DNA from: Solirubrobacterales bacterium
Lineage (GTDB): Bacteria > Actinomycetota > Thermoleophilia > Solirubrobacterales > 70-9
NCBI GenBank assembly: GCA_017304845.1
Contig: JAFKLL010000018.1
Location: forward strand, 1-64,000
Direction of reading: 5' to 3'
Length of the DNA stretch: 64,000 bases
The position numbers were made by a program, and so were the translations under genes. The notes under the pieces are model-generated. The model had not been told where the DNA came from and did no database searches. It saw nothing but the letters and a program-made list of their open reading frames with translations. Position 1 is the first letter of the stretch. Each line of letters opens with the position of its first letter. Of the stretch, positions 212 to 5,887 are shown piece by piece.

Positions 212-490
212 CTAGAAGGACCCGCCGGCCATGGCCGGCAGGATCATCACGGTGTCGGTGTCGCCGACCGCGGTCTCGAGGCCGTCCAGCACCCGCACGT
301 CCTCGTCGTTGAGATAGACGTTGACGAAGCGGTTCAGCTCGCCCTCACCGGAGAACAGCTGTTCCTTGGTGTCGGGGTACGCGACGACGAGGTTGTTCAG
401 AACCTCGCCGACGGTCGAGCCGGCGGCGTCGACCTCGGTCGCGTCGCCGGTGTGCTTGCGGAGAACGGGCGGAATCTTCACGGACGGCAT
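212..490 (-). CDS. cysO: CysO/MoaD-family sulfur carrier protein
   Basis: This 92-residue ubiquitin-like (beta-grasp) protein is very like mycobacterial CysO: it shares the IPPVLRKHTG start, the RFVNVYLNDEDVR core and the ILPAMAGG end. CysO carries sulfide as a C-terminal thiocarboxylate for O-phosphoserine-dependent cysteine synthesis. Two extra residues (Ser-Phe) follow Gly89-Gly90, so a protease would have to trim the tail before adenylation; no Mec+-type JAMM protease or cysM is visible here. The likely activating enzyme is the MoeZ-like gene just upstream on the same strand. A -10 element 7 nt before the ATG suggests its own leaderless promoter. A thiamine or molybdopterin role (ThiS/MoaD) is the alternative. 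Confidence 0.82.
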   Translation of the reverse strand: MPSVKIPPVLRKHTGDATEVDAAGSTVGEVLNNLVVAYPDTKEQLFSGEGELNRFVNVYLNDEDVRVLDGLETAVGDTDTVMILPAMAGGSF

Positions 491-497
491 GTGGCTG

Positions 498-503
498 ATC
501 CTA
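498..503 (-). promoter_or_regulatory. -10 element of the cysO-like gene
   Basis: TAGGAT read on the minus strand lies 7 nt before the ATG at 490, in the 43-bp gap after the MoeZ-like gene. The spacing puts transcription start at or next to the A of the start codon. No clear -35 hexamer is visible. Confidence 0.45.
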
Positions 504-533
504 TCGGTCGGACCGCGAGTTCAGGTGCGCCGG

Positions 534-1706
534 TCAGGAACCGACGTGCCCGCCGCAGAACGCTTCGTAGTCGGGGAACTTGCCCATCTCGGACTCCGGC
601 ACCTCGGGTGCGTTCGGACCGCAGATCGGGCATTCCGGATCGCGCCGGACCTTGAGCTCGGTGAAGCGGGTCCCGAGTGCGTCGTAGAGCAGCAGGCGGC
701 CGATCAGCGGCTCGCCGATGCCGAGGACCAGCTTCAGGACCTCGTTGGCCTGGAGCAGACCCATCTGGCCGGCCATCGCGCCGAGCACGCCGTTGGCCGA
801 GCAGCTCGGGGCCAGCTCCGGCGGCGGCGGGGTCGGGTAGAGGCAGCGGTAGCAGGGGCCCTCGTAGGGGACGAAGGTCGAGATCTGCCCGTCGAAGGAG
901 AGGATCGAGGCCGAGACGACCGGCTTCTTGAGCCGGACCGAGGCGTCGTTCATCAGGTAGCGGACCGGGAAGTTGTCGGCCCCGTCGACGATGATGTCGT
1001 AGTCCTTGATCACGTCGAGGATGTTCTCGGCGTTGAGGTGGAAGTTGTGCTCGATGACGTTGACGTCGGGGTTCAGCTCCTCGATCGTCTGCCGGGCCGA
1101 AGCGGTCTTCGGCTCGCCGATGCGGCTGGTGTTGTGGATCACCTGGCGCTGGAGGTTCGAAGCGTCGACCACGTCGTCGTCGACCAGGCCGATCGTGCCG
1201 ATGCCGGCGGCCGCGAGGTAGAGCGCGGTCGGGGCGCCGAGCCCACCGGCGCCGAGCAGCAGCACCTTGGCCTCGAGCATCTTGATCTGGCCTTCGACCC
1301 CGACCTCGGGCAGCAGGATGTGGCGTGAGTAACGGTCGCGCTGAGCCGGGGTCAGGTTGACGTTCGACTCGACCGGCAGGCCCTGGGCCTCCCACTCGAG
1401 GATGCCGCCGGCCATCGAGGCGACGTCCTCGTAACCGAGTGACTTGAGCACCACGGCGGCGTCGTAGGAGCGGGCGCCGGAGCGGCACTGGAGGATGACC
1501 CGCTGCGACTTGTCCGGAACCGCGGTGAGGATCCGATCGGCGATCACGCCGGGCGGGATCAGCTCGGAGCCCTCGATGTGGGACTCCTCGTACTCGTAGG
1601 GCTCACGGGTGTCGATCAGCTTGGCGCCACCGGCATCGAGCTCGGTGAAGGCCTCCTGCGGAGTGATCTCTTCGACTGTCTGCGTTTCGGTCGCTTCCGG
1701 TGCCAT
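534..1706 (-). CDS. moeZ: Rhodanese-ThiF adenylyltransferase/sulfurtransferase (MoeZ/MoeB-like)
   Basis: The 390-residue protein should adenylate the C-terminal glycine of a sulfur carrier and then transfer sulfur to it. Residues 15-112 are a rhodanese domain with active-site Cys74 in CRSGARS. Residues 124-375 are an E1-like ThiF/MoeB domain starting with the typical RYSRHILLPEVG, a GAGGLG nucleotide loop (152-157) and two Cys pairs (CYRC and CPIC) that should bind zinc. In mycobacterial MoeZ the rhodanese is C-terminal; here it comes first. ATG 1706 was chosen because AGGGG lies 8 nt upstream; the upstream in-frame TTG at 1712 is too close to that site. The adjacent CysO-like carrier is the probable partner. 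Confidence 0.88.
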   Translation of the reverse strand: MAPEATETQTVEEITPQEAFTELDAGGAKLIDTREPYEYEESHIEGSELIPPGVIADRILTAVPDKSQRVILQCRSGARSYDAAVVLKSLGYEDVASMAGGILEWEAQGLPVESNVNLTPAQRDRYSRHILLPEVGVEGQIKMLEAKVLLLGAGGLGAPTALYLAAAGIGTIGLVDDDVVDASNLQRQVIHNTSRIGEPKTASARQTIEELNPDVNVIEHNFHLNAENILDVIKDYDIIVDGADNFPVRYLMNDASVRLKKPVVSASILSFDGQISTFVPYEGPCYRCLYPTPPPPELAPSCSANGVLGAMAGQMGLLQANEVLKLVLGIGEPLIGRLLLYDALGTRFTELKVRRDPECPICGPNAPEVPESEMGKFPDYEAFCGGHVGS

Positions 1707-1750
1707 CGGCAAAACCCCTGAATCTCGATCTGGATTTGGTTACTTCAAAA

Positions 1751-1756
1751 AGTATA
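1751..1756 (-). promoter_or_regulatory. -10 element of the moeZ-like gene
   Basis: TATACT on the minus strand sits in a locally AT-rich patch (1741-1757) about 45 nt before the ATG at 1706. This would give a leader of roughly 38 nt holding the AGGGG ribosome site. The hexamer 17 bp further upstream (TGGAAT) is a poor -35. Confidence 0.45.
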
Positions 1757-1838
1757 GCGAGCTTCGGGAGCCGATTCCAGCCCCGAACCCCGACCACGAA
1801 GGGTACAGGTGATCCCGTCCACCGCAACCCGGCTGCGG

Positions 1839-2186
1839 TCAGCCCTGTAAGTCGTTCAGCGCCTCGGCCAGGACGGTGGCGTTGTTCTGCTTCTCGTTCT
1901 TCAGCCCGAAGAGGAGGGTCAGCGGGCCGTCGGTCTCGGCCAGGAGCTTCTTCATCTCGTCCTGCCTGTCCTCGAGCTCGACCAGGTACCGGGCCCGGAA
2001 CTCGTCGAACTCGAAGTCGTGGCCGTGGAACTCCTCCCGCAGTTCCGTGGAAGGCGCCAGGTCCTTGGCCCACTGATCGATCCGGTCTTTCTTCACGCCC
2101 CGTGGCCAGAGCCGATCGACCAGGACCCGCAGCCCGTCCTCGGGGCTCGCTTCCTCGTAGATCCTCTTGATCCTGATCTCAGCCAT
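1839..2186 (-). CDS. DUF488 family protein (YeaO-like)
   Basis: This 115-residue protein shows the hallmark DUF488 stretch LVDRLWPRG near residues 22-30, followed by a W-K-DLAPS segment. It ends with a TLLFGLKNEKQNNATVLAE block typical of the family, whose C-terminal part contains a conserved L(L/V)(Y/F) strand followed by a polar helix. The length matches YeaO-type members. The molecular function is unknown; some members sit near DNA-modification or stress genes. It is a single gene, divergent from the secreted-module genes. A -10 element lies 6 nt before its ATG. Confidence 0.85.
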   Translation of the reverse strand: MAEIRIKRIYEEASPEDGLRVLVDRLWPRGVKKDRIDQWAKDLAPSTELREEFHGHDFEFDEFRARYLVELEDRQDEMKKLLAETDGPLTLLFGLKNEKQNNATVLAEALNDLQG

Positions 2187-2313: not shown

Positions 2314-3444
2314 ATGACCCGCACCGCCATCACCTGGCTACTTTCACTTGCGTTCGCCGCCCTGGCCTTCGCCTCGACGGCGAACGCCGCCGGGACCGTC
2401 ACCCTGGAGGGGTACGTCTGGGGAGCGAGCCTCGGCGACGGTGGCGCGATCACGGCCCACCGCGGCGACGGCGCCACGGTCTACATCGCCGAGCATCCCG
2501 ATCTCAGGACCACCGCCGCGGCCGACGGCTACTGGAAGCTCGAGGTCCCCGACCGGGAGAGCGTCACCCCCTGCGCGGACTACGAGGGCCACCACCCCAC
2601 CTGCGACCAGACCTTCTTCACCCGAGGCAGCGACCTCAACCAGGTCAACTTCCAGATGGTCGACCACCAGATCGCCGGCATCCTCGGAGTGCTCTCCGGC
2701 GCGGCCATGGTCGACGGCCCAGACGGCGGGCCGCGAGTCAAGGAGTGCGCGATCGTCTCCACCTTCTACGAGAAGGAGAAGCGCAGCTTCTTCGACTTCC
2801 AGGACTTCCTCGACGCGGCCCCGCACGGCGTGGCCGGGGCCACCGCCGTAGCGACCTCGGAGACGGGCGCCGTGCTGCCCGGCCCGATTTACTACAACGA
2901 GTCCGTCATGCCGGACCGCTCGTACGACATGTCCTCACGGGACGGTGGCGTGATGTGGGTCGACATCCCGCCCGGCGTCTACACGATCACCAGCTCCCAC
3001 CCCACCGCTCGGTTCGCGCCCTTCCGGGCGACCTGCCGAGACGGCCGCCTGATCAACGCCAGCCCGCCCTGGGGCCTCTACGAGATGGCCCGCACGGAGG
3101 AGCCGAACCCGGCCGTCCTGCCGCCCGATCCGGACCGGGCCGTCGCCGGCGCCGTGGTCGCCTCCCGTGTCGTGAAGTCGGGCAAGCGCCGCCTGCTCGA
3201 GGTCACCGTCAAGGCAGGCGAGAAGCTGCGAGCGAGGGTCGAAGCCCGCCAGGGCAGGCGCCGCGCCGCCCGGAGCAAGGCATCCACCGGCAGGTTCACG
3301 GTGAGGCTCCCGCTCGGGCGGGGCTTCCGGGGCGGCTCGCTCCAGGCGAAGACGACCCTCATCGACTCGGCCGGCAACCGGGTCTCCTCCCGGGCCAGGC
3401 TGGCCGTACCCGCACCGGGTGCGAGCTCCCACCGCCGTCGCTGA
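2314..3444 (+). CDS. Secreted protein with one copy of a novel ~340-residue module
   Basis: A 376-residue protein with a Sec signal peptide (cleavage likely after STANA, residue ~25). The rest is one module that recurs twice in the next gene: a beta-rich part resembling carboxypeptidase regulatory-like repeats (VTLEGYVWG ... ATVYIAEHPDL ... DGYWKLEVPDRESVTP), a middle part with ECAIVSTFY and PHGVAG, a DGGVMWVDIPPGVYTI strand pair, the motif INASPPWGLYEM...TEEPNPAVLP, and a basic beta-sandwich-like C-terminal domain. No catalytic motif is recognised. GAGGAGA precedes the ATG at good spacing. Extracellular binding or structural roles are possible but unproven. Confidence 0.75.
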   Translation: MTRTAITWLLSLAFAALAFASTANAAGTVTLEGYVWGASLGDGGAITAHRGDGATVYIAEHPDLRTTAAADGYWKLEVPDRESVTPCADYEGHHPTCDQTFFTRGSDLNQVNFQMVDHQIAGILGVLSGAAMVDGPDGGPRVKECAIVSTFYEKEKRSFFDFQDFLDAAPHGVAGATAVATSETGAVLPGPIYYNESVMPDRSYDMSSRDGGVMWVDIPPGVYTITSSHPTARFAPFRATCRDGRLINASPPWGLYEMARTEEPNPAVLPPDPDRAVAGAVVASRVVKSGKRRLLEVTVKAGEKLRARVEARQGRRRAARSKASTGRFTVRLPLGRGFRGGSLQAKTTLIDSAGNRVSSRARLAVPAPGASSHRRR

Positions 3445-3488
3445 CTCAGACCTTCAAAGATTTCGATGTCAAACCAAGAGGAGAAGTA

Positions 3489-5768
3489 GTGATCAGATCG
3501 TCCATGGGCCGACTCTTCGGCCTGATCTCAGTAGTTGCAGCACTTGCGGCGATGGCCGCGTTCACCGCGCCGGCACAGGCCGCGGACACGGTGAAGATCA
3601 GCGGTTGGGCCTGGGTCTTCGTCGTCTCGGGCAGCACCCACGGGATCGAAGGGGCGACCATCAAGGTCGAGGAGATGCCCGACCTGCAGACCACCACCGA
3701 CGCCGGCGGCTACTGGGAGCTCGAGGTGCCGAAGGGCTCCACGGTCACGCCCTACGCCAGTTCCCCCGGCTACTACACCGTCCACGACCAGACCTTCTCG
3801 GTCCGCGACGACGATCTTCGGCAGGTCAACTTCCAGATGCCGTCGCAGGGCATCGTCGAAGGCATGGGCGCCATCGCCGGCGCCCAGCTGGAAGGCGAGG
3901 CCGGCTCGAAGAGGCTGAAGCAGTGCGCGGTCGTCTCGACCGTCTACCAGAAGGAGGGCCGCAGCTTCCTGACCCTCGACGACTTCCTCCACTTCGCTCC
4001 CCACGGCATCGAGGGGTCGACCGCCAGCCTGACCGGAGACGACGGCGCCGACGCGCCCGCGGGGCCGGTCTACTTCGGTAGCGACGTGATCCCGAACCCG
4101 ACCCTGACCTCCGCCTCACGTGACGGCGGCATCGTCTGGCCGAACGTGCCCGAGGGCACCTGGACCGTCTCGGCCCAGCACCCGGACCACCGCTTCTCCA
4201 CCGCACGCGTGACCTGCGAACCGGGCCGGCTGGTCAACGCCTCCCCGCCCTGGGGCCTCTACGAGATGTACGGCACCGAGGAACCGAACCCGGCCGTCCT
4301 GCCCTTCGAGACCAAGGCGGACCAGAGCCTCGATGCCGAGGCGACCTCGGTCAAGGTCGTCAAGCGGCGGAAGCGCGCGGTGCTCGTCGTCAAGATGCGT
4401 GCGGACGAGCCCGTGACCGCCGAGGTCACCGCGACCCAGGGCCGGGCCAAGACCCGCTCCGGCAAGCGGCGTCTCGCGGCCGGAAGCCGGACCGTCTCGC
4501 TGCCGCTGGCGGCCAAGCGCTATCGCCGCGGCGGCCTCAAGGTCACGGTTCGACTCTCCGACGAGAGCGGCAACGCCCGTCAGGCCCAGATCCAGGCCTT
4601 CGTTCCCCAGGTCCGGAAGGCCGTGAAGAAGGCGAAGCGCCACCCGAAGCCCAAGCGCGCGACGAAGGCCGCGATCGAGACCCGCTCACCGGCGGACACG
4701 GTCACGATCAGCGGCAACGCCTACGCCTTCATCTTCGCGGGCGACACCCGCCGCCTCGAAGGCGCCGAGATCAGCATCGCCGAGTACCCGGAGATCTCGA
4801 CCGTCGCCGGAGCGAACGGTGCCTGGTCCCTGGTCGTGCCGAACCACGCCAAGGTCACCCCGTTCGCGACGTTCCCCGACACGACGCCGGGCGACGCCGG
4901 CGACGACTACTTCCCGACCTACGCTCAGACCTTCTACACGAGCGATCGGGACATCACCCGGGTCAACTTCCAGATGCCGAAGCAGGCGGTCGCGGAAGCG
5001 ATGGCCTCCATCGTCGGAGCCGGCATGACCGGCACGACGGGGAAGAAGCAGCTCACCGAGTGCGCTGTGGTCTCGACCTTCTTCCGCCTCCAGCGGACGT
5101 CGGGAGAGGACCTGATCGACGGTCGGACCTACACCGACTTCGACGACTTCCACAACTATCGTCCGCACGGGGTCGCCGACTCGACCGCGACCATGACCGA
5201 CGCCACCGGCGGCACTCCCGGCGACCCGGTCTACTTCAATTCCTCGGTGATCCCCGACCCGAGCCGGACCTCGTCCTCCTCGGACGGTGGCGTGCTCTGG
5301 CGGAACATCCCCGCCGGCGAGTACACGGTCCGGGGCCAGAACGCCGAGAAGCGCTTCGGCCAGGCCCAGATCACCTGTGCGCCGGGGCGCCTGGTCAACG
5401 CCAGCCCGCCCTGGGGCCTCTACGAGCTGGCCGGGACCGAGGAGTCCAACCCGGCCACCTTCCCGGCCCCGCCTCTCGCCCCGGACACCCGGGTCGGCAA
5501 CGGGCTGCGCTCGGCCACCGTGGTGAAGAGCGGCCGGTCCAGGAAGCTCCACCTCGCGGTCTTCCCGCAGGACGAGCCGGTGACCGTGCGCGCCACCCTT
5601 CGACAGGGCAAGCGCCGGGTGACCCTCAACGGCCGCCTGGGCCAGAGCAAGCTCGAGCGGCGCCTCCCGGCGAAGCTCAAGTCCGGACCGGCTCAACTGA
5701 CGGTGCGACTCGGCGACAAGGCCGGCAACGCCCGGTCCGTCGCCGCCACGCTCAACGTCCCCCGCTGA
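3489..5768 (+). CDS. Secreted protein with two tandem copies of the same novel module
   Basis: The 759-residue protein starts at GTG 3489, chosen for an AGAGGAGAA ribosome site 3-4 nt upstream; the ATG at 3504 is second best. A signal peptide ends near AQA (residue ~30). Module A spans about 31-370, then a Lys/Arg-rich linker (about 370-398), then module B from about 401 to the end. Both carry the LVNASPPWGLYE motif, the CAVVST segment, the PHG(I/V) motif and the DGG(I/V)xW ... TV pair found in the preceding gene. Each ends in a basic domain with a (D/E)xAGNAR-like turn. The gene lies 44 bp after its paralogue, so they are probably co-transcribed. Function is unknown. Confidence 0.75.
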   Translation: MIRSSMGRLFGLISVVAALAAMAAFTAPAQAADTVKISGWAWVFVVSGSTHGIEGATIKVEEMPDLQTTTDAGGYWELEVPKGSTVTPYASSPGYYTVHDQTFSVRDDDLRQVNFQMPSQGIVEGMGAIAGAQLEGEAGSKRLKQCAVVSTVYQKEGRSFLTLDDFLHFAPHGIEGSTASLTGDDGADAPAGPVYFGSDVIPNPTLTSASRDGGIVWPNVPEGTWTVSAQHPDHRFSTARVTCEPGRLVNASPPWGLYEMYGTEEPNPAVLPFETKADQSLDAEATSVKVVKRRKRAVLVVKMRADEPVTAEVTATQGRAKTRSGKRRLAAGSRTVSLPLAAKRYRRGGLKVTVRLSDESGNARQAQIQAFVPQVRKAVKKAKRHPKPKRATKAAIETRSPADTVTISGNAYAFIFAGDTRRLEGAEISIAEYPEISTVAGANGAWSLVVPNHAKVTPFATFPDTTPGDAGDDYFPTYAQTFYTSDRDITRVNFQMPKQAVAEAMASIVGAGMTGTTGKKQLTECAVVSTFFRLQRTSGEDLIDGRTYTDFDDFHNYRPHGVADSTATMTDATGGTPGDPVYFNSSVIPDPSRTSSSSDGGVLWRNIPAGEYTVRGQNAEKRFGQAQITCAPGRLVNASPPWGLYELAGTEESNPATFPAPPLAPDTRVGNGLRSATVVKSGRSRKLHLAVFPQDEPVTVRATLRQGKRRVTLNGRLGQSKLERRLPAKLKSGPAQLTVRLGDKAGNARSVAATLNVPR

Positions 5769-5828
5769 GCGCGGGACGTCCCGCCACGTCTGCACGAGAT
5801 AGGACCAGAAGTCGGCAGCAAAAAGAAG

Positions 5829-5856
5829 GCCCCCGGATCTTGCGATCCGGGGGCCC
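5829..5856 (-). terminator. Intrinsic terminator of htpX
   Basis: A perfect 12-bp stem (GGCCCCCGGATC) with loop TTGC. Read on the minus strand the stem is followed by a T-rich run (TTCTTTTT), so it suits the end of the htpX transcript. On the plus strand no T-tract follows, though the hairpin may still slow the convergent transcript. Confidence 0.85.
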
Positions 5857-5887
5857 CACTGCCAGCTGTGTTGGGAGGGAAAACTTC

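What the first reader, a model, noticed from the sequence alone, without database searches (positions are those of the whole stretch)
2314..5768. A three-copy, unfamiliar secreted module in two tandem genes
Two adjacent exported proteins carry one and two copies of the same ~340-residue unit. Invariant landmarks recur in the same order: an N-terminal beta repeat, (D/E/T)-x-Q-TF followed by VNFQM, CA(I/V)VST, PHG(V/I), DGG(V/I)xW, NASPPWGLYE with TEExNPA, and a basic C-terminal domain. I cannot assign it to a known family. The fold may combine a carboxypeptidase regulatory-like domain with a new central domain. Copies differ enough to suggest old duplication and separate roles.
Basis: partly seen in the sequence, partly recalled or inferred. 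Interest (0 to 1): 0.6.

Follow-up and report, generated by a model that had tools for sequence, protein, structure and literature searches.

The report
Exported lipase-tail-like protein family
Two neighbouring bacterial genes carry three copies of an exported two-part module that no family library describes as a whole; its predicted shape matches the fat-binding tail of an archaeal lipase, so it may be a surface protein that holds fatty molecules, though that function is not shown.

Summary
Genes at 2314-3444 and 3504-5768 encode exported proteins with one and two copies of a ~350-residue unit (39-44% identical; BLAST E 1e-70 to 1e-94). Each unit is a ~225-residue core plus a C-terminal Ig-like domain. 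No Pfam or NCBIfam model covers the core; only its first part is a known domain (CarboxypepD_reg). [quoted passage not shown] next hits cover one sub-domain only). Sequence does not place it in that lipase family, and no catalytic domain is attached. The family is not confined to Thermoleophilia: it is common in Myxococcota (44/282 genomes) and present in Nevskiaceae, with one fusion to a ceramidase-like domain. Leaderless paralogues have mostly lost one of two cysteines that all exported members keep, which points to a disulfide. A tree shows the three copies predate species splits in the genus. Best reading: a stand-alone exported module holding lipid or hydrophobic ligands. Fold well supported; function inferred (about 0.4). 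New variant of a known kind.

The parts
2314..3444 (+). gene 1: exported protein with one unit (U1), 376 aa
   Evidence: ORF, AGGAG upstream of the ATG, signal peptide
2314..2391 (+). signal peptide of gene 1 (about 26 aa, AxA-type end)
   Evidence: read from the sequence
2392..3111 (+). U1 core: CarboxypepD_reg-like domain plus second beta domain ending in NASPPWGLYE
   Evidence: core profile match E 1e-92; alignments
3112..3441 (+). U1 basic C-terminal Ig-like domain
   Evidence: alignment to U2; Ig-like fold in the U2 model
3489..5768 (+). gene 2: exported protein with two units (U2, U3); start GTG 3489 or ATG 3504
3504..3584 (+). signal peptide of gene 2 (about 27 aa)
   Evidence: read from the sequence
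3585..4295 (+). U2 core; first part is PF13620 above cut-off; model matches A. fulgidus lipase residues 243-478
4296..4613 (+). U2 C-terminal Ig-like domain
   Evidence: model residues 248-342 match Ig-like/GH2 beta-sandwich domains, Z up to 11.1
4614..4694 (+). basic linker between U2 and U3 (KKAKRHPKPKRATKAA)
   Evidence: sequence
4695..5444 (+). U3 core
   Evidence: core profile match E 2e-95
5445..5765 (+). U3 C-terminal Ig-like domain
   Evidence: similar to the U2 domain (E 4e-6); Big_13 at 20.1 bits, below its cut-off

Best explanation
Each unit is an exported module of two fused prealbumin/CarboxypepD_reg-type beta domains, built like the C-terminal lipid-binding domain of A. fulgidus lipase but without a catalytic domain, followed in Thermoleophilia by an Ig-like domain and a basic tail. 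Proposed mechanism: the core binds a lipid or other hydrophobic ligand at the cell surface, as the lipase domain holds the long acyl chain, and presents it to other proteins or retains it; the Ig-like domain and basic tail space or attach the core to the envelope; one disulfide stabilises the exported form. Shown: export signals, domain make-up, fold match, family spread, co-variation of the cysteine pair with export, age of the duplications. Inferred: ligand type, attachment, disulfide, and what the multiplication of copies is for.
For: Two confident models (pLDDT 94.2 and 94.6) from members about 39% identical. For the core-only model the top four structural hits are the four A. fulgidus lipase entries (Z 10.4-11.2, 172-174 of 224 residues, 3.6-3.7 A, lipase residues 244-476); the next row is Z 8.0 and covers only the first sub-domain. 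The U2 model gives the same (Z 10.2, 176-179 residues). [quoted passage not shown] 2009, cited in PMC6501381 and PMC6172850). One Myxococcota member fuses the core to a ceramidase-like domain (PF04734, 47 bits against 32.1). Profile-profile score core vs lipase tails 38.2, against a maximum of 25.1 in 100 column shuffles and 19.6 reversed, in the register of the structural match. All 56 members with a detected signal keep both cysteines; 7 of 8 leaderless ones lost one.
Against: Identity to the lipase domain is only 9-12%, and a shared fold shows no function. The sequence signal covers only the first ~57 columns, where any CarboxypepD_reg domain might score. Pfam Lipase_C does not match the own genome. 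The most conserved residues of the two families differ. In 299 Thermoleophilia genomes the core (17) and Lipase_C (6 over the cut-off) occur together in one only. Gene neighbours outside close relatives are mixed. There is one fusion in one genome.
Confidence: 0.4

Rival explanations
1. Purely structural or adhesive surface protein: a chain of beta-sandwich domains (CarboxypepD_reg plus Ig-like) that forms part of the cell wall coat or sticks to surfaces, with no small-molecule ligand.
For: Single sub-domains resemble CnaB/SpaA, pilin, S-layer and teneurin domains; weak NCBIfam hits to adhesin and S-layer models; basic linker and multiple copies fit a wall-bound chain.
Against: A structural spacer would not be expected to keep H139, Y157, D174, C205 and NAxPPWG invariant across 33 members of several phyla; leaderless paralogues keep the core without the Ig-like domain; end-to-end match to a substrate-binding domain.
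Confidence: 0.3
2. Unrecognised enzyme: the invariant polar residues (E34, H139, Y157, D174, R209, N212 in A4 numbering) form an active site in the second domain.
For: Strict conservation of polar residues in distant members; prealbumin-like folds include enzymes (intradiol dioxygenases; own knowledge).
Against: No enzyme domain with this end-to-end arrangement in the structure search; no catalytic family match; no conserved pathway partners.
Confidence: 0.15
3. Accessory subunit that docks on secreted hydrolases (lipases, ceramidases) in trans, the way the lipase tail works in cis.
For: Ceramidase fusion in one genome; an S15-type alpha/beta hydrolase lies 44 bp upstream on the same strand in Sinimarinibacterium, a lipase-like alpha/beta hydrolase about 3 kb away in another genome, an esterase gene divergent to the core in a third.
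Against: No conserved hydrolase neighbour in Thermoleophilia, where neighbours are ThiS, ThiF-rhodanese, M48 peptidase or an ABC transporter and DUF1802; little co-occurrence with Lipase_C lipases.
Confidence: 0.12

Closest known systems
C-terminal domain of Archaeoglobus fulgidus lipase AFL (PDB 2ZYR, 2ZYS, 2ZYI, 2ZYH; Pfam Lipase_C PF18067 covers part of it)
   Same: Whole ~225-residue core aligns end to end (Z 10-11, 172-179 residues); first strands align in the same register at profile level
   Different: 9-12% identity; no alpha/beta hydrolase domain attached; no PF18067 match in the own genome; different conserved residues; exported alone, as lipoprotein or with an Ig-like domain
CarboxypepD_reg (PF13620; regulatory domain of metallocarboxypeptidases D and N)
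   Same: First ~85 residues: Pfam match over cut-off in gene 2, fold Z 11 to human carboxypeptidase D
   Different: No M14 catalytic domain; it is only the first part of a fixed two-domain core with its own signature
EMC7/NOMO beta-sandwich (PF09430)
   Same: DGGxxWxxVPxGxYxIxxxxPxxxF stretch of the second domain scores over the Pfam cut-off in gene 2
   Different: Only about 44 residues match; the rest of the domain does not

Membership tests
CarboxypepD_reg (PF13620) | Pfam profile score above the curated cut-off | tested here: met
   Gene 2: 44.3 bits against 32.3, residues 39-112; U2 alone 42.1; 38 of 46 members match at E<=0.01. U1 alone is below cut-off (19.8).
CarboxypepD_reg (PF13620) | accounts for the whole unit | tested here: not met
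   Covers about 75 of 350 residues
A. fulgidus lipase C-terminal domain | two-domain beta fold over the full domain length | tested here: met
   Two models of distant members, Z 10.2 and 11.2, lipase residues 243-478
Lipase_C (PF18067) | Pfam profile match | tested here: not met
   No match at E<=1 in the own genome; the same model finds AFL-type lipases in 6 of 299 Thermoleophilia genomes
AFL-type lipase | alpha/beta hydrolase catalytic domain in the same protein | tested here: not met
   Genes 1 and 2 have no hydrolase domain
AFL-type lipase tail | binds long-chain acyl substrate | not testable with these tools
   needs a binding assay or structure with ligand
M14 carboxypeptidase | zinc peptidase catalytic domain | tested here: not met
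   No such Pfam match
EMC7 beta-sandwich (PF09430) | Pfam match over cut-off | tested here: inconclusive
   28.9 bits against 26.6 for gene 2, but 21.9 for U2 alone and only profile positions 24-67 of 122

The most novel reading that the evidence does not exclude
A widespread, undescribed family of free-standing bacterial surface lipid carriers that shares its fold with the substrate-holding domain of a lipase, with paralogues on both sides of the membrane (exported with a disulfide, cytoplasmic without it) and occasional fusion to sphingolipid-cleaving enzymes.
Probability: 0.25. Interest if true: 0.6.

Novelty: new variant of a known kind. Interest (0 to 1): 0.4.

Why it matters
It turns an unassigned protein into a defined, signature-bearing family (C-x-[VIA]-x-T ... 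HG ... YFN ... DGG ... NA[NS]PPWG) found in Actinomycetota, Myxococcota and Gammaproteobacteria that the family libraries cover only in part, and gives it a testable fold-based hypothesis. If the core binds lipids, it would show that the substrate-holding part of a lipase is also used alone, as a surface protein, and would give a first function to a gene amplified in poorly cultured Solirubrobacterales.

Tried and rejected
Plasmids and phages: no homologue by tblastn and no PHROG match, so no sign of a mobile-element or phage protein. PDB by sequence: only weak partial hits to NOMO2, EMC7 and carboxypeptidase D. Recent lineage-specific triplication: rejected, as U2 groups with G011 (98/89) and U3 with G005/G002 (86/90). 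Operon-based function: neighbours in the genus are conserved (ThiS, ThiF-rhodanese, M48 peptidase; or ABC transporter, cysteine synthase, DUF1802), but this is genus synteny and does not recur elsewhere. Acyl-CoA ligase, thiolase and short-chain dehydrogenase neighbours were considered as a lipid clue but such genes are common in these genomes and no enrichment was measured. Lipase_C partner hypothesis: not supported by co-occurrence. Ceramidase fusion: sought in 14 genomes of the same order, no second case. Literature searches gave nothing on the family.

Full report
The window lies in a Thermoleophilia genome: it is in the same genus as the genome holding contig MKST01000011.1, Solirubrobacterales bacterium 67-14. 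Gene 1 (2314-3444) and gene 2 (3504-5768, or from GTG 3489) are co-directional with about 44-59 bases between them, each with a Shine-Dalgarno-like AGGAG and a signal peptide. Gene 1 holds one unit and gene 2 holds two; the units are 39-44% identical over their whole length. A fourth copy lies on contig C59 of the same genome.

Domain anatomy. A unit has a ~225-residue core and a ~100-residue C-terminal domain. The first ~85 residues of the core are a CarboxypepD_reg domain (over the Pfam cut-off in gene 2). Inside the second half a short stretch resembles the EMC7/NOMO beta-sandwich. No Pfam or NCBIfam model covers the core. The C-terminal part is an Ig-like beta-sandwich in the model and is missing from many homologues, so the core is the unit of evolution.

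Fold. The U2 unit was modelled from 46 aligned sequences (pLDDT 94.2), and the core of a Nevskiaceae member from 33 (pLDDT 94.6, pTM 0.91). For the second model the four best structural matches among the 1000 Foldseek candidates are the four entries of Archaeoglobus fulgidus lipase, with Z 10.4-11.2 over 172-174 residues, spanning core residues 1-224 and lipase residues 244-476. The next match is Z 8.0 and covers only the first sub-domain. The U2 model gives the same answer for its core (Z 10.2, 176-179 residues). By plain Foldseek the lipase ranks lower (E 3.5e-3, TM 0.49 by query). [quoted passage not shown]; the paper itself was not available here).

Sequence relation to the lipase tail. 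True relatives of that lipase occur in 6 of 299 Thermoleophilia genomes, found with Lipase_C; one matches 2ZYR over most of its length at E 9e-52. Comparing a 70-sequence core profile with ten lipase tails gives a score of 38.2 over 57 columns, in the register of the structural match; 100 column shuffles reach at most 25.1 and the reversed profile 19.6. This part is the CarboxypepD_reg-like domain, so it supports common ancestry of that domain but does not by itself prove a specific tie to the lipase. Lipase_C does not match the own genome. I therefore say 'built like the lipase tail', not 'a member of Lipase_C'.

Spread and history. Profile searches find the core in 17 of 299 Thermoleophilia genomes, 6 of 396 Actinomycetota genomes sampled, all of them from the window's own order, 44 of 282 genomes in the Myxococcota sample (a few at borderline E) and 3 of 274 in the class of Sinimarinibacterium. 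Named loci include Nevskiaceae, Polyangiaceae, Nocardioides and Acidimicrobiales. Myxococcota and Nevskiaceae members are mostly lipoproteins or signal-peptide proteins. In a maximum-likelihood tree of 70 cores the window's three copies sit in one clade (100/98) with the genes at the same locus, between the ThiF-rhodanese gene and the M48 peptidase gene, in four congeners. U2 pairs with G011 (98/89) and U3 with G005/G002 (86/90), so the duplications are older than those species splits. The copy on contig C59 belongs to a separate lineage at another conserved locus.

Cysteine pair. Two cysteines (A4 positions 114 and 205) are present in all 56 members with a detected signal peptide, and also in U3 and other exported-looking members that the simple detector missed. 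Eight members have no room for, or no sign of, a signal peptide; seven of them have lost one of the two (six lost the first, one lost the second). On the tree these fall into at least three separate groups. The simplest reading is a disulfide in the exported form and genuine cytoplasmic paralogues; the bond itself is inferred.

Functional clues. One Myxococcota lipoprotein (L185:3190-6081, 964 aa) carries the core followed by a ceramidase-like domain (PF04734, 47 bits against 32.1). No second case was seen in 14 genomes of its order. Neighbouring genes outside close relatives are mixed; esterase, lipase and S15-hydrolase genes occur near the core in single genomes and are weak evidence. Together with the fold this favours lipid or hydrophobic-ligand binding at the cell surface, which I hold at about 0.4. 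A purely structural or adhesive role is the main rival.

Noticed in passing
L185:3190-6081 (Myxococcota genome G695): Lipoprotein in which the core is followed in one frame by a neutral/alkaline ceramidase-like domain (PF04734).
   Followed up: yes
L038, L039, L049, L052, L053, L054, L055, L173: Leaderless short copies of the core, at the locus B pair directly 5' of a long exported copy; nearly all have lost one cysteine of the conserved pair.
   Followed up: yes
L105 (record labelled Bifidobacterium breve MAG) and L075 (Myxococcota MAG): Their cores nest inside Thermoleophilia clades, which suggests mis-binned or mislabelled contigs, or transfer.
   Followed up: no
window 215-2186: ThiS-like carrier protein, ThiF-rhodanese fusion and inactive-type DUF488 on the minus strand; in congeners this sulfur-carrier set lies near cysteine synthase and JAMM-like genes, as in a CysO-type cysteine route.
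   Followed up: partly
window 5826-5857: Strong 14-pair terminator-like hairpin between gene 2 and the convergent M48 peptidase (HtpX-like) gene.
   Followed up: no
L175-L184: Bacterial AFL-type lipases with Lipase_C domains in Thermoleophilia, including one in the window's own genus (G005, L177).
   Followed up: partly
L057, L058 (genome G054): Two very divergent cores on a long branch (1.09 changes per column), possibly with changed function.
   Followed up: no
L190, L191, L187: Distant Myxococcota lipoproteins related to the core that lack the conserved cysteines and the NAxPPWG ending, next to the same ATPase-like gene (MQDVRALNELVAKES...) in three genomes.
   Followed up: no
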